The translations under genes were made by a program, and so were the position numbers. Positions 31,002-44,516 of a DNA stretch of 44,516 nt are shown here, piece by piece (within the stretch, counting starts at the first letter, position 1; the number at the start of each line of letters is the position of its first letter). Source of the DNA: a virus. A model generated the notes under the pieces. The model ran no database searches and was not told the origin of the DNA. It saw only the letters and a program-made list of their open reading frames with translations. The stretch spans positions 1 through 44,516 of the IMG/VR virus record IMGVR_UViG_3300047462_000707; one strand, 5' to 3'.

Positions 31002-34000
31002 TCAGAACGTCGCCGTCTGCGCCGACTGCTGCTTGTGGAACAGGAAGGCCGCCAGACCGGTATCGTCCAGGCCGTCCAACGGGTTGGTGACGACCTCGCG
31101 CAGAGCCGACTTGCGCGCCAGGCGGGTGCGCGCGCGTCGTTCCTGCGCATGGTTTGCAACCAAGTCGTGCAAGTCGATATTGTTCTGTTGACCGATGCGG
31201 TCGATACGTCCGGCGCGCTGGGCATGGACCATGGCGGTGTCGGGCGTGTCGAATTGCGCCAGCCAGGATCCCGATTGCAGGTTGGCGCCGACCGCGCCGG
31301 CATCCGAGCAGACGACGATGTCGGCTTTGCGAGGACCGGAGTCGGGGTTGAAGGCGCGGATCTTGGCCGCCTTGTCCTTCGACGAGTCCTTGCCGGTGAC
31401 GACGATGACGCGGTGGCCTTCGGCTTCCAGGCGTGACTTGATTTGACCGACCGCATCGAGCGAGCGTGCGAAGACCACGCCGGGACGGCCGCCGTGTTCC
31501 TGCGCCAGGCTGGCGACCTTGTTAAGTTTTCCGGAATCGGGGTGGGCATTGAGCGCGCGGTTGATTGCCGCGTTCTTGATCACGCCCAAGGCCTTGGTCA
31601 GGCTATGCGCCACCGCTTCGTCCCGCGTCTCGTCGGCGCCGAACGATTCGGGAGACAGCGCTTTCAAGGCGGCAACGTCGGCGCCGCCGGCCATCTTGGC
31701 GATGCGCGCCGCCGCCACGTGGCGATCCACCGCATCGAGCGCCGCCCGTTGCGAATCGGTCAGCTCGACCTGGTGAACGTGCCGCGTCACGTTGACGTCG
31801 GGCGCGATGCGCGCGGTGTAGGCATGGCGCGCGAGTTCACGGCGTAGTCCATCTTGCGCGTACACGGTGTCGCCGCCGTAACGGCGCATGAAGGCCGCCC
31901 GATCACGGTAGCGCCCCGCATCCATTTTTGCGAGCAGGTCGAACGCTTCCGAGGCATCGTTCTTGACCGGATCACCCGAGGCGTGGACGTAGTAATCGGC
32001 GTTGTCGGTCACACCTTGCACGGCATTGGACATGCGACTGTTCTCTTTGCCTTCGCGGTTGAGCAGGCCGTGCCCTTCGTCGGCCATGGCATAGTCGAAG
32101 GCAATACCCTCCTTGTCCAAGGCGGCCTTGACATAAGCTTTGCGCTCGGCTTGGCTCATGCCGTCGAGTTTCGCTGCGACTGTGTCCGGCGTGGCGCCTT
32201 CCTGTCCGGCGGCAATCTTGAGGATGTCGTCGCGGAACGACTGATGGGTCACCACATGAAAATGCGTGCCGGGATCCTTGTATGCAGCCAACCGTTCCTC
32301 GTTCGTGGCGCCTGGCTGGCAATGCCAGTTGAATTGACCTGGCTGCAGGAAGCGCAAGGCTTCGGCGCCGAACTGGCCTTGCACGATGGACGGAACCACG
32401 AACACGCCCTTCTTGATCTTGCCCTCGCTGTGCAAGTCGGCAAACGCGCCCAGGCCGATGCCGGTCTTGCCGGAACCGACACCCAGACCCATGATGGCGC
32501 GCTTGTTGGCCTTGATGAACTTGATGGCGCGCTGGCGCTTGATGCCGTCTTTGCCCGACATCGAGGCATGGAACAGTTTGACGGGCTGGCCGGGCACAAA
32601 ATTGCGGCCGGCGACACCCATCATGGCCGCCAGCTTGTTCTCGGCAGCCTGGCCGATGGTATGTCGTTCGTCCGGCCCAAGCGGCTTGCGCTGTTCGTCC
32701 GCGCCCCGATGCGCCCCTTCGGCACTAGCGGCGGGCGCCTGCTCTGCGGAAAAGAAACCCATTTGGGCCTGTTCGAATGCTGCCTTGCTCTCTTTGGCGG
32801 CATCGAGCTTGTCCGCCACCTTGCCCGCTGCGTAGGCGCCGTTGGCGTCTCGCTCGCGCAAGCCGTCGATCAACTTGCGCTCGGACCGGATACGCGCTTC
32901 GCGTGCCGCCGGGTCGACGGCGTCGAGGTGGTTCAGGTTGCCGCGAATGACGGTTTTACCGAGTTTTAGCGGCTGACCGGGTACCAGCGTGTTGTAGTGC
33001 CGGGCGAACTCGCTGGAAACCTTTGAGCGAACCAGGTCCTGGATTGCGGCGTAGGCCTTATTTTGGCCGCGCATGGTCTTTGCGTAGTCGGGCCAGGTGA
33101 GGCCGCTGCCACGCAGCTTGTCGGTCAATTCCCTGCGCGCCGACTCCCATGCCTGGTGGTTTGGATTGGCGGTTGTTTCGTCGAACATATCGACGACGGT
33201 TTTGTGCGGCTCCTGCGCCATGTGTTGGTCAAGCTCGTCACGCAGGCGCGCGTGCTCCGATGACTCCTTGGCGACATGGGTGCGGAAATAGCTGCGCAGC
33301 GCACGCCGGTCGCCATCGTGCAATTCCCCGATCTGCTTGTAGGCAGAAGAACCGACCGGCTCTGCCGATAGCGCACGATGAAGCGCTTCCTGCACCACCT
33401 TGTCGGCCACGAAGGTCTGGCTATTCAAGGTGGAGCGTGTGCCGCCCCATCGGTTCTTGACGAAGTCGTCCGCGTAGTCGTTGAACAGGGGCGCCAGCTC
33501 CTCGGCACGCTGCAATTGCTTGCCGCCGGGCTGCTTGTTGGGTGCAACCTGGTCGAGCGCGGCGCGATAGTCGATGGCGCGTTCCGCGCCGACCCTCTGG
33601 AAATAGTCGGCCGACTGCAGGTCGCACAAAATGTCGGCCGGCATGTCGCCGTCGGCCGTGCGGCTGCCGATATGGTCCCGTAGCGACTGCGCCAGGTCGG
33701 CTCCCGGTGCAAAAGGCTCGGCCATCGACATGGCGACGCCCGGCTGCACTTTCAGCGCCAGGTCGGCACGGTTGGCGAATCCCTTGGGCAACCAGTCGTC
33801 TTCGTCCTCGGCGCCCTTCATGATGGCCAGGTTGCGTCGTACGCGCTCGATGCCGGCAGCATCGACCGGCTGGGCCAGGCGCTCCATGCCAGACGCGGCT
33901 ATCGTGACCACGTGGCTGGTGCCGGCTTTTTCCAATTTGTAGTCCCCCTTCTTGAGTCCGATGGCACGCAATTGCTTGATGGCAGACACGAGCGGGGTGT

Positions 34001-35579
34001 CGCCCAGCGAAACGGGTACGGCATCGCGCGATTTCTCGCGCAAAGCCATGACCAGGGCAGCATTGGCTTCCATTTCGCCCAATGCTCGACCCAGCACCTT
34101 GTCGGCATCGGCCAAGGCTTCCATACGTTTGCGGTTCAGTTCGGCTTTGACCAGGACGTCTTCTGCACCGGCGGCCGGATCAAATTCCATCGCCGCCGCC
34201 TGTTCCTGCAGGGCGGCAACATCGGCTAACGCCGAAGCAGACAATTCCTGGTGATGCTGCAGGTGGTAAGCGGCCATGGAGTCGGCAATCTCGTTGATCC
34301 GCTCGCCACCGAGATCGGTATGCAGTCGTCGCGCCAGGATCTGCGCGGCAGCGGCGGCGCCCAGGACGTCCACCACAGAGCGATCGAGCAGCGCCTCGCC
34401 GCCGGCCGCGAGTGCCAGGGCATTGAGTGCATTGAAGGCGCCGGCGGCGCCGTGGTGTTCCAGTTCGGTTCCCTGGGGATCGCGCTTGCTGACAGCGGCG
34501 AGGAAGGTTCTGGTTTGCGCCGTGCGCAGGCTGTCGGCAATACTTCTCTCGATATCGCCATCCGGAATTGGGGTGCTAAGCGGCGTGCTTTCCAACACGT
34601 AGGCCTGCGGCTCGGTTGAGCGCTCGATGGCGGCATTGGCGGCGCGCGCGGATTGTTCGATGGCGGCAAGCTGTTTTTGCGCCTTGAGTAGCGCTACCGC
34701 CTGCTTGACATCGACCAGGAGGGCGCGCAAATCCGGCTGGCCGATGTTGACCTTGTCCAGTTCGGCTTTGATTTGTTGCGCGACGCTCGGGTGCTTCGGT
34801 GGCGTGGCGCCCGGCTTGTCGACCTCGCTGGGCGAGGCTTGCGCTTGAACGGTGTCTTTTTCTGCCTGGATTTCTTCGGGCGTCACGCCGGCCGCGTCGG
34901 CGCGCGCCTGGTATTGCGGATCGAATCCCAGGCCGTGGTTGCCGCGCACGGGATCGAGGTCGGCGACCGACAGTTGCGTGACGTCGTCGGTGTGCAGCGG
35001 CATTTCTCCCGTGAAGGCTTGCTGCCTCGCGTCGGCGTCGATCAATAGGCGTTTGCGCTGGAGTTGCACCGCTTCGCGCGCAGCGCCGAGCAAGGTGCGG
35101 TGATGTTGCTTTTGCGCCTTGACGCGCGCCGCCTCGGACAGGTCTGCGTGCAATGCGTCGTCGAACGCAAGCGCTTCACTGTCCCAGCCCATGGCCTCGG
35201 CGACGGTATGGATAAAGGCATGCTCGGCGGCTCGCTTCTTGAGCGCAAGGTCTTTGCGCGCTTCTTTCTTGATGCCGGCAACGCCAAGCTCCGCATCCTT
35301 TTTACGCTGCAAGGCTGCGGCGACACGGCGCTGTTTGCCGCGCTCAGCGGATTCCTTGGCATAGGCGCCGGCGGATTTGACGCCGGTCAGTTTCAAATAG
35401 TTGAGTTTGCCGCCGGCGCCGCCGATGACGTGGACTGTTGCCGACCCTGGCGCGACAGGCTGTACCAGTACCGGCTGTCCCTTGCCGTCGCCATGGGGAT
35501 GTACCGTGATCCAGCGCGCGCCGGGCGGGATGTCCGAGGATTTGAGAAAAAATAAGGCAAAATTCGCAGGACACACCAT
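31002..35579 (-). CDS. Giant SNF2-family helicase protein in the head operon
   Basis: A 1525-residue protein. The C-terminal about 500 residues are a SNF2-type two-lobe ATPase: motif I GVGSGKTG (about 1030-1040), motif II DEGH (about 1165), and the motif V/VI region with SDAGAVGANLQ then QRAGRIDRIGQ (about 1450). The N terminus has a WITVHPHGDGKGQPVLV element and the centre is long and helical, with no seen methylase motif. Its place between minor head protein and protease suggests a virion-packaged internal protein, as with P1 DarB-type anti-restriction factors, but it could act on DNA in the cell. It lacks a Shine-Dalgarno and has the GTCGTGAC element 14 bases upstream. Confidence 0.8.
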   Translation of the reverse strand: MVCPANFALFFLKSSDIPPGARWITVHPHGDGKGQPVLVQPVAPGSATVHVIGGAGGKLNYLKLTGVKSAGAYAKESAERGKQRRVAAALQRKKDAELGVAGIKKEARKDLALKKRAAEHAFIHTVAEAMGWDSEALAFDDALHADLSEAARVKAQKQHHRTLLGAAREAVQLQRKRLLIDADARQQAFTGEMPLHTDDVTQLSVADLDPVRGNHGLGFDPQYQARADAAGVTPEEIQAEKDTVQAQASPSEVDKPGATPPKHPSVAQQIKAELDKVNIGQPDLRALLVDVKQAVALLKAQKQLAAIEQSARAANAAIERSTEPQAYVLESTPLSTPIPDGDIERSIADSLRTAQTRTFLAAVSKRDPQGTELEHHGAAGAFNALNALALAAGGEALLDRSVVDVLGAAAAAQILARRLHTDLGGERINEIADSMAAYHLQHHQELSASALADVAALQEQAAAMEFDPAAGAEDVLVKAELNRKRMEALADADKVLGRALGEMEANAALVMALREKSRDAVPVSLGDTPLVSAIKQLRAIGLKKGDYKLEKAGTSHVVTIAASGMERLAQPVDAAGIERVRRNLAIMKGAEDEDDWLPKGFANRADLALKVQPGVAMSMAEPFAPGADLAQSLRDHIGSRTADGDMPADILCDLQSADYFQRVGAERAIDYRAALDQVAPNKQPGGKQLQRAEELAPLFNDYADDFVKNRWGGTRSTLNSQTFVADKVVQEALHRALSAEPVGSSAYKQIGELHDGDRRALRSYFRTHVAKESSEHARLRDELDQHMAQEPHKTVVDMFDETTANPNHQAWESARRELTDKLRGSGLTWPDYAKTMRGQNKAYAAIQDLVRSKVSSEFARHYNTLVPGQPLKLGKTVIRGNLNHLDAVDPAAREARIRSERKLIDGLRERDANGAYAAGKVADKLDAAKESKAAFEQAQMGFFSAEQAPAASAEGAHRGADEQRKPLGPDERHTIGQAAENKLAAMMGVAGRNFVPGQPVKLFHASMSGKDGIKRQRAIKFIKANKRAIMGLGVGSGKTGIGLGAFADLHSEGKIKKGVFVVPSIVQGQFGAEALRFLQPGQFNWHCQPGATNEERLAAYKDPGTHFHVVTHQSFRDDILKIAAGQEGATPDTVAAKLDGMSQAERKAYVKAALDKEGIAFDYAMADEGHGLLNREGKENSRMSNAVQGVTDNADYYVHASGDPVKNDASEAFDLLAKMDAGRYRDRAAFMRRYGGDTVYAQDGLRRELARHAYTARIAPDVNVTRHVHQVELTDSQRAALDAVDRHVAAARIAKMAGGADVAALKALSPESFGADETRDEAVAHSLTKALGVIKNAAINRALNAHPDSGKLNKVASLAQEHGGRPGVVFARSLDAVGQIKSRLEAEGHRVIVVTGKDSSKDKAAKIRAFNPDSGPRKADIVVCSDAGAVGANLQSGSWLAQFDTPDTAMVHAQRAGRIDRIGQQNNIDLHDLVANHAQERRARTRLARKSALREVVTNPLDGLDDTGLAAFLFHKQQSAQTATF

Positions 35580-38050: not shown

Positions 38051-39791
38051 CACACCTCATCCAGGGCGAATACCGGCGGCAGACCGAACGCCTTGCCGAA
38101 ATCCGGGGTGCGCGCTTCGTCGCCGAATTGCGGGGTAGATGCCGCGCCGCTGTCTTCGCGACCAGCGATACCCTGCGCTTCCACTGGTCTCTGTCCGCTC
38201 TCGTCGGCCGTGTCAGGCGATTGTCGCGGTGTTTGTTGGGGCGACTCCTGATCCGCCGCATCCGGCAGATTGACTTGCAGCCACGGCTGGATCAGCGAAG
38301 GGTTGACGGGCGCATCGCCGATCGGCCCATCCATGGCCTGATAGCCCTCTTCCGCGCGGATTTCATTGACGGTCAAGACCAGCTTGCGCATTTCCTGCTT
38401 GTTGTCCGTATCTTCGGGATCGAGTCCGGTCCAGCGAAACACGAAGTCCTCGGAAAACTCGGCGACGATGAAGTCGGAGAAGGTGTTTTCGTAAGAGGAC
38501 AGCAACGGCCGGAGTCCTTGGACGCAGCAAGCTTTTCTTCGGTATCCGCCCCGGATAGCGGCGAGCTGTTGCCGCCCGAGAACGAGTCGAAATTGATTTC
38601 CGCCGGCGACATGCCGTACAGCGCGCAAATGATCGACGTCAGGAACGTCATCCACTTGGAGAAATACATCTCGTTGAATTCGACGCCGAAGCGCTCGAAG
38701 CTTGCCTTCGATTCCTGGTCTTTCGAGATCATCACCGGCAGGGACCAGGCGTTGTTGATGCCCTTGACCATGGCATTCCAATACATCTTGAATGCCTGCA
38801 GATCCTTGGCATCGTAATTGCCGGTCAGGTGCAGCATGCCCTTGGGGATCGCGTTCGAATCGAAACCCTTGATGTTGTAGGTCATGGCATTGATGTAGCC
38901 GGTGACGACGCGGATCAACAATTCCGTTTCGGACAGCCCGTAACCGCCGACCGTGACGTCGGCACGAGGGTTGCGGCATTCGTAGACCAGGTCCTCGTGG
39001 GTATAGGCCGTGGTGATTTGTCCTTGGACGAGCTGAAGCGCGAAGATTTCGTCGTCGCCCCAGTAGCCCTCCTCGGTACAGAGACGGATCGTGGCGCCAT
39101 CGACGGCATAGAAGCCGTCTATGCCCTGTTTCATGTCGCGCTTCCATTCCAGCTCGATACCCGTCGAATCCATGGTAAGCGAGTCGCGCACCGAACGCGC
39201 CATGAACTGGCCGAAGGCGTCGCGGCGCAGTGCCTTGCGCAGGCGTGGCTTGAATTCCCAGCCGCAGTTCATCATGAAACGGTTCAGGCGATTGCGCGCC
39301 TCCTTTTCCGATTTTGTCAACTGATGGTCGCGATCGACGTGGCGAATCTCGAATCCGGGCATCTCGTTACTCGAGTCGGCGATCCGGCAAAAGCGCTGCA
39401 CCTGGCGGCTGCGGGTCATGATGACGGCGTTCAGGATCGGCGTCTGGCCAACCATCATGCGCAGGGAGTCGAACGACAAGCCCGACGGCCGCTCCCAGAA
39501 GTCGCCGTGGATGTTCACTTGCCAGTCGTCGAGCATGACCGACTTCATGCCCGGCTTGTTCAGTTTCAGGTTGCGCGATGGGAACGGCACGATGTTGGCG
39601 TCAATGGCCTTGTGAATCGACGCTTCTTCGAATTGGTGCACCGCTTCGTCGATGATGCGCCGGACGTTTTCTGGCGGGAGCAAGTCGGTTGCCGTCGGCA
39701 GGTGCTCGCGCTGCAGTTGCGAGAGCGCATCGGTACGTTCATCGTGTGGCGCCGCCGGGTCAAATGCAGCGACAGTGGCGGGGTCGGACAT
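38050..39791 (-). pseudogene. Portal protein, interrupted by a frameshift
   Basis: Reading from ATG 39791 (MSDPATVAAF, AAGGG ribosome binding site), the frame gives a portal-type protein for about 425 residues: IIDEAVHQFEEASIHKAI, VMLDDWQVNIHGDFWERPS, YEFRHVD-type loop, LRKALRRDAFGQF, TYNIKGFDSNAIPKG, ICALYGMSPAEINFDSFSGGNS. After EEKLAASKD (about 38514) the frame degenerates, while the -1 frame continues with LRPLLSSYENTFSDFIVAEFSEDFVFRWTG and runs to 38050. No slippery heptamer is at the junction, so a deleted base (or sequencing error) is more likely than programmed frameshifting. Without repair the portal would lack its C-terminal part and the phage would not assemble. Confidence 0.75.
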
Positions 39792-40193: not shown

Positions 40194-40272
40194 TAGCAAA
40201 AGACGCCTTCACCTACTACCGGCCGTGAATGTAGCCGGGCCGGCGCCTAAACGTACGCTTCATCTTTCCGCA

Positions 40273-40291
40273 GCAAGTTCCATCAACTTGC
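40273..40291. terminator. Hairpin after the small plus-strand gene
   Basis: GCAAGTT pairs with AACTTGC around CCATC, 80 bases after the stop at 40193. No clear T run follows, so termination is uncertain. Confidence 0.3.
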
Positions 40292-40323
40292 GGCGCCATT
40301 GTCGCTTGCCGGCGACGCGTCAT

Positions 40324-40352
40324 TTGTCTTCCTCATTTCGGCATGCTATTTT
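40324..40352 (+). promoter_or_regulatory. Sigma-70-like promoter for the GIY-YIG gene
   Basis: TTGTCT, 17 bases, TATTTT, with a TGC just before the -10 (extended -10). It lies about 80 bases before the start at 40435 in a relatively AT-rich stretch. Confidence 0.4.
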
Positions 40353-40406
40353 TATAACCAACTTGTGCGACATATCGCCATTCCTCCAACCGGCCGGAGT
40401 AAGACT

Positions 40407-40413
40407 TCGTGAC
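40407..40413 (+). promoter_or_regulatory. TCGTGAC element before the GIY-YIG gene
   Basis: Core of the recurrent word (TTCGTGAC) pointing along the plus strand, 21 bases before ATG 40435 and followed by TACAGCAT, recalling the TTCAGCAT and ATCAGCAT after other copies. Confidence 0.35.
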
Positions 40414-40434
40414 TACAGCATCCGTGGCAACGGC

Positions 40435-41922
40435 ATGAGCAAGCGACTTCCAGCGGCAGAGAGCATCCATCTTCGTTCGCTTATCGAATCCGGCCACATC
40501 GCCAGCAAAGAACAACTCCTTGAAGAAGTGCGCCGTCAAGGCTGGAACATTTCCCTGATCGGCGACGATTTCATCTCCATCCGCATCTCGGGCGGACGCG
40601 CCTTTCGCTTCCGGTTTTGCCTGGACGGCGCGCAAGAGGTAGGCTGGGTTTATGCGCTGATCGCGACGGACGCTGATCAACGCGCTTGCTACATCGGCAG
40701 TACGAAAGATTTTCAAAGGCGCATGGCCGAACACGTTCGCGTCCAGCAGTTGGCGCACCTCTTTTTACTCGGCGGCTCGACCGAGTTTTTCCGTTGGGCG
40801 GCGCAGAGGAATTTGACAGTGCGCAGCTTGTTGCTGGAGAAAGTGTTCGGCCCGAGCAACCTGGCGTACCGGGAATCGTGCTGGACCGCTGCGGCGCAAT
40901 ACGAGGGATGGACATTACCCGGCGTCGAGCGGTGGGGCCGCAAAAACAACCGCGAGATTGCCCGCCCCTCCGAAAGCGAATATGTTCCGTATCAGGAAAC
41001 CTATTTGCAAGCCTTCGACCTTTCCAAAGCCAAGACCTTGCGCCACCACGTTCTGGGCCGCGATGACGCGGTAAAAGATCATCCTGACCCTGCCGAATCG
41101 GCGCAAGCTCACCTACCCGCGAACAGTGAACTTCAGATGGACAATTCCGACGCAAGCCAATTCGATCGATACACGATTTATCTTCTCGTCAACCCGCTCA
41201 ATCGGCGCCCGTTTTTCGTCGGACTGACGAACGGCCAGGAGAGCGGTATCGTCGTGTTCGATCGGGCTCCAGCTGATATTGCACGAAATCAGATCATGCG
41301 GGCCATCTACGAAAGCGACAAACAAATACAGGCTGTCGAGGTTGACCACGCACCTGACCAGAGCCGTGCCACGACGCTACGAACATTCTGGATCGAATTG
41401 ATGCTGCGATCCGGCGCCGATATTGTCAACGCCGAGGCGGGCCACAATATGCGTAACCGGGCGGTGCAAGTACATCTTGCCGCGTGCGGCAAATCCTTGC
41501 ACGAAATGCCGCTGCCGTTCGCAGCAAGCACGGGACCTATCCAGGTATCCACGGAAAACGGCGAGGCAGCACCAAAGGCCCGGACGCGCCGACGCAGGAA
41601 ATCACGGAAAGAGCCGGACTCGGAGGCCGCAACGAAAGCCCAGAATCTGCCCGCACGGCACGGCGAGCGCTGGCATACAAATGAGCAGGAAACCGTGGCG
41701 CAACGTTATTTGCAGGGACACACGCCAAAGGATATCGCCTCCGACCAACAGCGCAAGGAGTCGAGCATTCTTGCAAAGCTCGCACAGATGGCGGCGAAGG
41801 ACAAACGCATTCGGCACCGTTTGGTTGCGGACGGCTTAACCGACGCCAGTGGTCAATTGTTTATCCTCGATCGCGCCGGCAATCGCGTCGAAACTGACCC
41901 GTTGCGGGATGCGAATGTGTGA
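40435..41922 (+). CDS. Tandem GIY-YIG nuclease-like protein with DNA-binding ends
   Basis: A 495-residue protein starting MSKRLPAAES at 40435; the upstream frame extension is unlikely. N terminus (10-64) resembles a winged-helix element known from relaxase C-terminal regions (HLRSLIESGHIASKEQLLEE ... DDFISIRISGGRAFRFR). First GIY-YIG domain: WVYALIAT (71-78), CYIGST (85-90), Arg95, His100, Glu147. A second, degenerate one (about 243-345): TIYLLVNP, FFVGLT, then FWIELMLRSGADIVN with Glu and Asn in the right places. The C terminus is a basic linker and a helix-turn-helix (VAQRYLQGHTPKDIASDQQ). It could be a homing or defence nuclease. It reads against the terminase gene. Confidence 0.7.
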   Translation: MSKRLPAAESIHLRSLIESGHIASKEQLLEEVRRQGWNISLIGDDFISIRISGGRAFRFRFCLDGAQEVGWVYALIATDADQRACYIGSTKDFQRRMAEHVRVQQLAHLFLLGGSTEFFRWAAQRNLTVRSLLLEKVFGPSNLAYRESCWTAAAQYEGWTLPGVERWGRKNNREIARPSESEYVPYQETYLQAFDLSKAKTLRHHVLGRDDAVKDHPDPAESAQAHLPANSELQMDNSDASQFDRYTIYLLVNPLNRRPFFVGLTNGQESGIVVFDRAPADIARNQIMRAIYESDKQIQAVEVDHAPDQSRATTLRTFWIELMLRSGADIVNAEAGHNMRNRAVQVHLAACGKSLHEMPLPFAASTGPIQVSTENGEAAPKARTRRRRKSRKEPDSEAATKAQNLPARHGERWHTNEQETVAQRYLQGHTPKDIASDQQRKESSILAKLAQMAAKDKRIRHRLVADGLTDASGQLFILDRAGNRVETDPLRDANV

Positions 41923-41945: not shown

Positions 41946-44516
41946 TCAAGCTGTTGCGAATAGGTCACAACCCACATCGTTCTCTTTGACACGTAGGAAG
42001 CGCAAGGTACAAGTTCCCAGTTCGTATGCCAGGCATGCGCCGCAGGTATTCGCGCCCATCGTTGCAGTTTGACGGCGCATCATGTGAATGACCGGGTTGG
42101 CCGAAAGACCGCCGGGTATCTCAATCAGGCCTGGTTCGTTCGCCGCGTCCGGCAACAGGAACGATGTCGTGCCATGCGCTCGCGCCCAGGCAACGTTCAA
42201 TAGCATGTAGGCATAGGAAAAGTGCGGATCGATCCCGACCTTGACGACGCGTCGCCGGTATTTGTTCTGTTCCTCGTCCTTTTCCGCGATCAGGGCGGTG
42301 CGCGTGAAATGCACGAACACCCGGTCCTTGAGGATTGGCGCCAGCCGCTTCTCGCCACGGATTCCACCCTTTTCCGTGATCTCCTGCAGCAAGCCTTCGG
42401 GATCGGGGAATACCGTTGTCAACTTCTGCACGCGCGCCATGGCAACCTGCATGCATTTGTACTGGTCGAGCGTTACGGTATAGCGGTCGCGCTCCGCCTC
42501 ATCGGTCTTGCGCTCGGACCTGGTCGGCACCGCGTCGCCCCAACGCAGCATGTCCTCTCGCATGTCGGCATAGCCAGCCAGGAAGACCTTGCCCGGATGG
42601 CGATTGGCGAAGCGCTTGGCGTCGTTGTAGTTCGGCAGCGTTTCCACGCAACAGACGGCGATACGGTAGACGCGCATCAGTTCATCGCAGCGGGCGAAAG
42701 GGTCGAGGTCGTAAATTTCCTCGGCGTGCACGATCGCCATGTGGCCTGACTGCAGGCGCTTTGCCACAAGGACAACGTTGAACGCCCCCATCTGGTCGAT
42801 GCCCATGAAATACCCGTCGCCGCGCTGTTCCCACTTGACGCCCAGCCTCACGCCTTCCCTGGCGCAGTTGTTGAGCATTTCCAGGTTAACCGGCACTTGG
42901 GAGGGATCGACGTAGGGCTTCCCAAGTTTCCGGTTATAAAAATTCTTCATATCGTCGGCGTTGTAGTATGCCTCGATGATGTTGCGCGCCGAGATGGTCG
43001 GTGAGAGGAACTGCGGAAAGTGGATCGAGACGTTACGCGCCTCGGGATCCTGGGCGATCCAGGTGCCGTCCTGCGGATCAATCAGGAACGCGCCGCACGG
43101 CTTGCAAACGTAGCGGTAGTCGCCAACTTCCGCGTCGAACTTGATGCACTCGGGGAAGTATTCGTCGAGCACGTTGCCGGCGCCGCAGGCCGGGCAGCGC
43201 GAATGAAACTGGTGCCGGGTGCCGCGCTTATAGAGGAAGTGGATATCGCGGTCGGGCCAATTGGCGGTCGAGCCGGCCAGCGTGAATTTTATACGGGAAG
43301 CGGACAGGCGTTCAGCCACCTTTTCCATATCGGCGACCTGCATTTCCTGCACCTCGTCCAGCGCCAGGATGTCCATCGGCACCGATTCGGTCGCGCCCTT
43401 GCCCGAAGTCCAGAGGAAGAAGAACTTGGAGCCGCCGAGGTTGCGGATCATGACGTTGCCCTCGCCGCCCCTGCCCTTGCTTTCCGGGTCGACCATCAGC
43501 TTGTAGGCGTCAGGGATGGTCCGCAGGATGGGCATGAAGCGCTCGGTCGATTTCACGCCGGCCAGCTTCATATCGGGCAAAAACATGCCGACCGTAACCG
43601 GCATGAATTTCAGGGACATGTAAATCATGCCCAGGATTTCCATGACGGTGAAACCGACCTGGGCGCACTTCATCAGGACGACCGATTTTTCGTGCGCCTC
43701 TTCGATCGAACTGGGAATCTGGTCATAGATGAACCACATTGCCGGACGGTCGTCCACCGAGAATGCGTGGCCGTCGACCTTCAGGCCGTCGGCCGCCAGG
43801 CGCTGGCACCACATCCTGAAGGTCTCGTCGCGCCCGATCAGCGTCTGTGTGGCCGACAATTCGATGGGGGTATCGACGAATTCGGCACCGCGCTCCTGCA
43901 GGAACACTTCCGGCGCCATGGACATGCGGTCGCGCTCGAGCTCGGTACGCTCGAAATGGGGATTGGCCTCGGTCGGAAGCTGGAAGGACCGATAGCGCGA
44001 ATCCGACTCCTGCAACGCATATAGCTTGGCGAAGCCATTCCTGACGCCTTGAGGTTTGCCGAACAGCCAGGCCCGCCCTCGATGCCGCGCCAGCATCGGC
44101 TGAAGCGCATGCAACCATATGTCGGCGATGCGTTCGATCTTGTGGCAATCGTCTACCACGACGAGCGCGAGCTGGTCCCATAGCTCATGGGTTTCGGCAT
44201 CGAGTGCGAAGAAACTGATCGAACCGCCATTAAGGAGTTCGACGCGAGTGCGATCCAGACGGCCGCTCAATAGCGGTTGGATCAGGGCGAAGATGCGCCG
44301 TTTGGCCATCGATATCGCGTCGCCGTCCGGCAGGAACAAGCCGACCGGGAAGCCGTTTAACGCACCAAAGTCTGATACGAGCAGCGCGTCTAGAGCAGCA
44401 GTAGTCTTGCCCCCGTCTCTCGCTCCAGCGACGATGGTAAAGCGCGCCTTAGAGGCAAGAATCTCCTCCTGCTTCGGAAACGGCGCCGGAAATGGGATGC
44501 GGAATTCTTTTGCCAA
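41946..44516 (-). CDS. Large terminase subunit (GpA-like) with an extra N-terminal ATPase domain
   Basis: An 856-residue or longer protein; the only start at the window edge is TTG, so it may continue outside. Residues about 15-210 form a terminase-like ATPase: Walker A GARDGGKT (31-38), Walker B LALVVVDD (116-123) and coupling motif FGKPQGVRNGFAKLY. From about 255 a second, GpA-type core follows: KCAQVGFT (283-290), DILALDEVQ (382-390), a Cys4 ribbon (CPACG 441, CKPC 471) and the nuclease part beginning YFMGIDQMG. The end is Cys-rich (CGACLAYELGTCTLR ... GCDLF). It packages DNA into proheads. The double ATPase is unusual. Confidence 0.85.
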   Translation of the reverse strand: MAKEFRIPFPAPFPKQEEILASKARFTIVAGARDGGKTTAALDALLVSDFGALNGFPVGLFLPDGDAISMAKRRIFALIQPLLSGRLDRTRVELLNGGSISFFALDAETHELWDQLALVVVDDCHKIERIADIWLHALQPMLARHRGRAWLFGKPQGVRNGFAKLYALQESDSRYRSFQLPTEANPHFERTELERDRMSMAPEVFLQERGAEFVDTPIELSATQTLIGRDETFRMWCQRLAADGLKVDGHAFSVDDRPAMWFIYDQIPSSIEEAHEKSVVLMKCAQVGFTVMEILGMIYMSLKFMPVTVGMFLPDMKLAGVKSTERFMPILRTIPDAYKLMVDPESKGRGGEGNVMIRNLGGSKFFFLWTSGKGATESVPMDILALDEVQEMQVADMEKVAERLSASRIKFTLAGSTANWPDRDIHFLYKRGTRHQFHSRCPACGAGNVLDEYFPECIKFDAEVGDYRYVCKPCGAFLIDPQDGTWIAQDPEARNVSIHFPQFLSPTISARNIIEAYYNADDMKNFYNRKLGKPYVDPSQVPVNLEMLNNCAREGVRLGVKWEQRGDGYFMGIDQMGAFNVVLVAKRLQSGHMAIVHAEEIYDLDPFARCDELMRVYRIAVCCVETLPNYNDAKRFANRHPGKVFLAGYADMREDMLRWGDAVPTRSERKTDEAERDRYTVTLDQYKCMQVAMARVQKLTTVFPDPEGLLQEITEKGGIRGEKRLAPILKDRVFVHFTRTALIAEKDEEQNKYRRRVVKVGIDPHFSYAYMLLNVAWARAHGTTSFLLPDAANEPGLIEIPGGLSANPVIHMMRRQTATMGANTCGACLAYELGTCTLRFLRVKENDVGCDLFATA

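What the first reader, a model, noticed from the sequence alone, without database searches (positions are those of the whole stretch)
41946..44516. Terminase large subunit with two ATPase modules in one chain
The N-terminal about 210 residues contain a complete-looking terminase ATPase signature (GARDGGKT, VVVDD, GKPQGVRNGF) but no nuclease. They are followed by a full GpA-type terminase with its own P-loop region (KCAQVGFT), DEVQ Walker B, zinc ribbon and nuclease. A typical large terminase has one ATPase. The extra module could regulate packaging, act as a built-in small-subunit substitute, or be a relic of fusion between two terminase types.
Basis: partly seen in the sequence, partly recalled or inferred. 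Interest (0 to 1): 0.75.

Follow-up and report, generated by a model that had tools for sequence, protein, structure and literature searches.

The report
Terminase carrying a dead second motor
A family of roughly 90-kb tailed phages makes its DNA-packaging enzyme as one chain with a second, apparently non-hydrolysing motor domain fused in front of the working one, at the place where sister phages carry a separate small gene that is probably the usual small subunit, so it looks like a broken motor reused as a built-in control part.

Summary
The 856-aa ORF at 44516-41946 (-) is a terminase ATPase domain (residues 1-215) fused to a complete GpA-type terminase (about 229-856). It is not an error: seven isolated phages match over at least 99% of its length, as do dozens of IMG/VR contigs and five bacterial-genome contigs. 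AlphaFold2 plus Foldseek place residues 1-226 on the P74-26 and T4 gp17 terminase ATPase domains.

The interpretation needs changing. The first module is ATPase-like but probably does not hydrolyse ATP. The catalytic Walker B glutamate is absent in 67/67 fused proteins (D, N or G) and present in 11/11 free relatives. The Walker A arginine is lost in nearly all, though the window keeps it. The GpA motor residues are invariant in 88/88. Low dN/dS in close pairs argues against a relic.

Unfused relatives (about 690 aa) carry a roughly 220-aa helix-turn-helix, helical gene upstream (29 of 30 loci). It was not found in 23 fused genomes, nor the N-module in 7 unfused ones. On a GpA tree the two states switched at least three times.

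Best reading: a degenerate terminase ATPase domain, captured once and then swapped between phages, standing in for the small terminase subunit. That function is inferred.

The parts
41946..44516 (-). Fused terminase, 856 aa (N-terminal ATPase-like module + GpA-type terminase); TTG at the contig edge
43872..44516 (-). N-module, residues 1-215: TerL ATPase domain of the T4 gp17 / P74-26 kind, ending where the nuclease of a free TerL would begin
   Evidence: PHROG, tblastn to free TerLs over residues 11-215 only, AF2 pLDDT 91.9 / pTM 0.88, Foldseek to P74-26 TerL ATPase E=3e-12 and T4 gp17 E=7e-10
44403..44426 (-). N-module Walker A GARDGGKT (res 31-38); Lys37 present, Arg33 retained here but lost in most relatives
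44148..44165 (-). N-module Walker B LVVVDD (res 118-123); catalytic Glu position 123 is Asp
   Evidence: 67/67 fused without E, 11/11 free TerLs with E
44031..44060 (-). N-module motif C-like segment GKPQGVRNGF (res 153-162)
   Evidence: alignment with free TerLs
41946..43832 (-). GpA-type terminase part (res about 229-856), shared with the unfused relatives
   Evidence: phrog_675 5e-86, Pfam PF05876 3e-16; unfused homologues about 690 aa
43647..43670 (-). GpA Walker A-like KCAQVGFT (res 283-290); K283 invariant
   Evidence: 88/88
43347..43358 (-). GpA Walker B DEVQ (res 387-390); D387 and E388 invariant
   Evidence: 88/88
43095..43196 (-). Zinc-ribbon Cys pairs (res 441-474) between GpA ATPase and nuclease
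   Evidence: C441, C444, C471 invariant in 7
42228..42797 (-). Nuclease carboxylates D574, E625, D763
   Evidence: invariant in 7; role assigned from knowledge of GpA/TerL nucleases

Best explanation
A single-chain terminase. The GpA part (residues about 229-856) is the working DNA-translocating ATPase and nuclease. The N-terminal 215 residues are the ATPase domain of a T4-type large terminase that lost its own nuclease and its catalytic glutamate. It probably still binds ATP but hydrolyses it poorly or not at all. It was captured once from a free TerL, then exchanged between phages. It occupies the place of the roughly 220-aa HTH/helical, probable small-subunit gene (plus the about 40-residue N-terminal segment of GpA) of the unfused relatives, and most likely does that subunit's job: nucleotide-gated recognition or holding of DNA and regulation of the GpA ATPase and nuclease. 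Shown: the fusion, its conservation, the fold prediction, loss of the catalytic residue, selection, mutual exclusion with the upstream gene, and repeated switching. Inferred: ATP binding without hydrolysis, that the upstream gene is a small terminase, and the functional replacement.
For: Full-length homologues in 7 isolates and many IMG/VR contigs, with 5 in bacterial-genome contigs. Fold. Catalytic Glu absent 67/67 fused against present 11/11 free; Walker A Arg R in 3 of 66 fused against 10/10 free; GpA K283 and D387-E388 88/88. In T4 gp17 even Asp/Glu swaps in Walker B abolish packaging, and the DE-to-ED mutant binds ATP more tightly without hydrolysing it (PMC3012670). Mutual exclusion: upstream gene in 29 of 30 unfused loci; whole genomes 7/7 unfused against 0/23 fused with only two sub-14-bit partial hits; N-module 0/7 unfused, 5/5 fused. 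GpA tree needs at least 3 switches, 0% of bootstrap trees with one; AU test rejects one fused clade, p=0.0005. N-modules are one clade, 99% SH-aLRT, next to free TerLs L131/L132 that keep GRRFGKT and DEAA. N-module dN/dS 0.03-0.12 in close pairs. Mecenats66, a member, packages by headful from a preferred pac site although no small subunit was found (PMC9503643).
Against: The upstream gene matches no Pfam or PHROG small-terminase family and no known fold significantly, so calling it a small terminase rests on position, size, HTH-like N-terminus and helical content. One unfused locus (L078) lacks it. An unrelated small subunit elsewhere in the fused genomes is not excluded. No DNA-binding domain that would replace the HTH was identified in the fused chain. 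Asp at the catalytic position might leave slow hydrolysis. The whole chain was not folded.
Confidence: 0.55

Rival explanations
1. Two working ATPases: the N-module hydrolyses ATP as a second motor ring or clamp that takes turns with the GpA ring.
For: Walker A Lys retained in 61 of 66 fused members, Walker B Asp122 67/67, motif C-like segment retained, predicted fold of an active TerL ATPase; the window itself keeps the Walker A Arg.
Against: Catalytic Glu absent in 67/67, including N or G in four; Walker A Lys lost in five (L013, L023, L025, L026, L054) whose GpA parts remain intact. In T4 the E/D swap is fatal to packaging (PMC3012670).
Confidence: 0.12
2. Structural or docking accessory: the N-module no longer needs nucleotide and serves as a fixed scaffold, for example at the portal or between terminase subunits, without taking over small-subunit functions.
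For: N-module evolves faster than GpA (median 36% against 62% pairwise identity), and the Walker A Lys is lost in some members.
Against: Walker A GK[TS] is still kept in most members, and the module alternates with the upstream HTH/helical gene, which a pure scaffold would not predict.
Confidence: 0.2
3. Non-functional relic of a fusion between two terminase genes.
For: Loss of the catalytic Glu and in most members of the Walker A Arg.
Against: Low dN/dS in close pairs (0.03-0.12), full-length retention in every fused member recovered complete, repeated exchange between GpA backgrounds.
Confidence: 0.05
4. Sequencing or assembly error that joined two genes.
For: The contig ends at the start codon and the portal gene in the same contig looks frameshifted.
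Against: The same architecture at full length in 7 independently sequenced isolates and in many contigs.
Confidence: 0.01

Closest known systems
Morganella phage Mecenats66 terminase (UIS74616, 873 aa) and its kin in phages Dolphis, Jeremy, ST4, Touem01, phiT5282EW, fHe-Yen8-01
   Same: Same two-module architecture over >=99% of the length. Mecenats66 packaging was shown experimentally to be headful with a preferred pac site (PMC9503643).
   Different: That paper reported only the GpA domain and no small subunit, and grouped it with PHB04, whose protein (698 aa) lacks the N-module. The second ATPase domain is not mentioned in the passages read.
[quoted passage not shown]
   Same: GpA part 45.5% identical to the window.
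   Different: No N-module; a separate 217-aa gene overlaps the GpA start.
T4 gp17 / P74-26 TerL (classical large terminase)
   Same: ATPase-domain fold of the N-module.
   Different: They have the catalytic Glu and their own nuclease; the N-module has neither and is followed by GpA.
Lambda gpA (GpA-type terminase) with gpNu1
   Same: GpA-type ATPase, zinc ribbon and nuclease. From memory, a Walker A with Lys in the early position, as in KCAQVGFT.
   Different: Lambda uses a separate small subunit gpNu1; here a degenerate TerL ATPase domain is fused instead.
Free TerLs in IMG/VR contigs L131 and L132
   Same: Closest free relatives of the N-module (hmmsearch 1e-53 and 1e-56), aligned from the start to the nuclease boundary.
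   Different: Ordinary about 400-aa TerLs with GRRFGKT and DEAA and a nuclease; an HTH gene upstream and a portal-like gene downstream were seen for L132.

Membership tests
Large terminase, TerL ATPase domain (N-module) | Terminase ATPase fold | tested here: met
   AF2 pLDDT 91.9; Foldseek 3e-12 to P74-26 TerL, 7e-10 to T4 gp17
Large terminase, TerL ATPase domain (N-module) | Walker A GK[TS] and Walker B Asp | tested here: met
   present in window; K 61/66, D 67/67 in fused set
Large terminase, TerL ATPase domain (N-module) | Catalytic glutamate after Walker B | tested here: not met
   D/N/G in 67/67 fused, E in 11/11 free TerLs
Large terminase, TerL ATPase domain (N-module) | Followed by its own RNase H-like nuclease | tested here: not met
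   similarity to free TerLs stops at residue about 215, then GpA begins
GpA-type large terminase (C-terminal part) | Match to GpA ATPase family above curated cut-off | tested here: met
   PF05876 60.3 bits against cut-off 25.6; phrog_675 5e-86
GpA-type large terminase (C-terminal part) | Conserved ATPase and nuclease residues | tested here: met
   K283, D387, E388 88/88; D574, E625, D763 invariant in 7
Small terminase (TerS) role for the N-module | Alternates with a TerS gene at the same locus | tested here: inconclusive
   alternation with an HTH/helical gene, but that gene is not proven to be TerS
Small terminase (TerS) role for the N-module | Binds pac/cos DNA and stimulates the large subunit | not testable with these tools
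   biochemistry needed

The most novel reading that the evidence does not exclude
A single-chain terminase holoenzyme: a dead motor domain from one terminase class has been recruited as the nucleotide-sensing small subunit of another class, and phages repeatedly swap it for the ordinary small-subunit gene.
Probability: 0.4. Interest if true: 0.78.

Novelty: new variant of a known kind. Interest (0 to 1): 0.62.

Why it matters
How the small terminase subunit controls the packaging motor is poorly understood, and in lambda and T4 it also binds nucleotide, in T4 for no known purpose (PMC9611059, PMC3012670). A lineage in which that role seems to have passed to a fused, non-hydrolysing motor domain would give a natural one-chain terminase, a fixed 1:1 stoichiometry to study, and a test of what the small subunit must do. 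It could also explain why no small subunit was found in a pac-type phage (Mecenats66). Terminase trees used to predict packaging strategy should treat the two modules separately.

Tried and rejected
1) I first guessed that the 217-aa gene upstream of PHB04 GpA was the split N-module. It is not: no similarity by blastp; it is HTH/helical and absent from fused phages. 2) search for related loci with the N-module alone gave nothing; the full alignment and the N-module alignment worked. 3) Chimeric assembly or sequencing error: rejected. 4) Linking the upstream gene to known TerS by Pfam, PHROG, hmmsearch against four TerS or TerS-position proteins (SSU5, hairong, QDWS, EcS1) and the HTH gene beside L132, or fold search: no significant match. 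5) A conserved substitute gene upstream of the fused terminases: none common to all. 6) Literature searches for a two-ATPase terminase: none found; only open-licence papers are held. 7) L013 as a chimera of L025-type and L017-type sequence: both flanks match L026 at 98%, so recombination is likelier, but not proven.

Full report
CHECK OF THE OBSERVATION. The window is a whole IMG/VR contig. The ORF runs from its last base, 44516 (TTG), to 41946 on the minus strand, 856 codons without a stop. Residues 1-214 alone match terminase PHROGs (phrog_7579 3e-11, phrog_2 8e-10), and residues 244-783 match phrog_675 (5e-86); Pfam GpA_ATPase scores 60 bits against a cut-off of 25.6. tblastn finds seven isolated phages whose single place covers >=99% of the chain at 39-54% identity: Aeromonas ST4, Pseudomonas Touem01, Jeremy and Dolphis, Enterobacter phiT5282EW, Yersinia fHe-Yen8-01 and Morganella Mecenats66. 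So the fusion is real and the start is at most a few residues off.

WHAT THE FIRST MODULE IS. Against free terminases the N-module matches only over residues 11-215 (PdC23 4e-13, Hardycor1 2e-11), and the match stops where a free TerL goes on into its nuclease. An AlphaFold2 model of residues 1-226 from 41 aligned sequences has pLDDT 91.9 and pTM 0.88. Its best solved matches are all terminase ATPase domains: P74-26 (3e-12), T4 gp17 (7e-10), D6E, Sf6. So it is the ATPase domain of a classical TerL without the nuclease.

IT IS PROBABLY NOT A SECOND MOTOR. Across 67 fused proteins the residue after the Walker B Asp, the catalytic Glu of terminases, is D (63), N (2) or G (2), never E; in 11 free TerLs it is always E. 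The Walker A Arg is R in 3 of 66 fused (the window is one) and in 10 of 10 free TerLs. The Walker A Lys is kept in 61 of 66. In the GpA part, K283, D387 and E388 are the same in all 88 fused and unfused sequences. In T4 gp17 even Asp/Glu swaps in Walker B abolish packaging, and the DE-to-ED mutant binds ATP more tightly without hydrolysing it (PMC3012670). Inference: the N-module binds ATP but does not turn it over usefully. It is under selection: dN/dS 0.03-0.12 in close pairs such as L049/L050, L033/L035, L043/L046 and L013/L025, rising to 0.34 in L015/L053. More distant pairs are saturated or recombinant and were not relied on. The N-module diverges faster than GpA (median 36% against 62% identity).

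WHAT STANDS IN ITS PLACE ELSEWHERE. An IMG/VR scan gave 80 loci; with 8 reference sequences the set has 57 fused (about 870 aa) and 31 unfused (about 690 aa) proteins, near-copies included. In 29 of the 30 unfused cases with upstream sequence there is a 160-280-aa gene upstream, in most overlapping or touching the GpA start; L078 is the exception. This family has an HTH-like N-terminus and a helical remainder (model pLDDT 78, pTM 0.40), as a small terminase would, but no Pfam, PHROG, PDB or BFVD match reaches significance. In whole genomes its profile is found in 7 of 7 unfused and in none of 23 fused records except two partial hits under 14 bits. The N-module is found in none of the 7 unfused and in 5 of 5 fused. 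Of seven unfused loci with upstream sequence in bacterial-genome contigs, five carry the gene and two have a divergent gene of the same size in the same place.

EVOLUTION. The N-modules form one clade (99% SH-aLRT) next to the free TerLs L131 and L132, which keep GRRFGKT and DEAA: one capture. On the GpA tree the fused/unfused label changes 4 times (at least 3 forced by supported branches, 0% of bootstrap trees with one), and an AU test rejects a single fused clade (p=0.0005, quick tree, long branches present). L013 and L026 share 98% DNA on both flanks and 94% of the N-module but only 58% of GpA, a likely direct view of module exchange.

HOW IT PROBABLY WORKS. GpA-type terminases normally work with a small subunit that recognises DNA and regulates the ATPase and nuclease. 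Here that partner gene, and the about 40-residue N-terminal segment of unfused GpA, are replaced by a nucleotide-binding but catalytically degenerate ATPase domain in the same chain. The simplest reading is a cis-acting small-subunit substitute, with ATP binding as the switch. Mecenats66, a member, packages by headful from a preferred pac site although its authors found no small subunit and noted only the GpA domain (PMC9503643). The replacement itself is inferred, not shown; a scaffold role or a separate undetected small subunit remain possible.

NOVELTY. No paper in the searchable library was found that describes a terminase with two ATPase domains, with the limit that only open-licence papers are held. 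The proteins are deposited as 'terminase', 'terminase large subunit' or 'hypothetical protein'. I rate it a new variant of a known kind.

Noticed in passing
window 38278-39695 (-): The portal gene appears frameshifted: similarity to the ST4 portal passes from one minus frame to another near 38508-38520. It may be a sequencing error or a broken gene.
   Followed up: partly
window 40225-41922 (+): A 565-aa ORF with a weak GIY-YIG nuclease match (7.9e-5) lies on the opposite strand between terminase and portal.
   Followed up: no
window 31002-35579 (-): A 1525-aa helicase-like protein (phrog_62, 1e-148) lies between portal and head protease; Mecenats66 has a gene annotated helicase in the same place.
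   Followed up: no
L003:11222-11875 and the 20 members of alignment A2: A family of about 220-aa HTH/helical proteins upstream of unfused GpA terminases has no significant Pfam or PHROG model; it is a candidate new small-terminase family.
   Followed up: partly
window 41967-42044 (-): The C-terminal tail has invariant cysteines C825, C828, C836, C850, a possible second zinc site, also in PHB04.
   Followed up: no
L013, L025, L026: Near-identical flanks and N-module but a different GpA part: apparent replacement of GpA by recombination within the gene.
   Followed up: partly
L004:1-3367 and L005:628-7068: A large protein annotated ADP-ribosyltransferase lies a few kb upstream of the terminase in ST4 and fHe-Yen8-01; in the latter both it and the terminase are annotated as particle-associated.
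   Followed up: no
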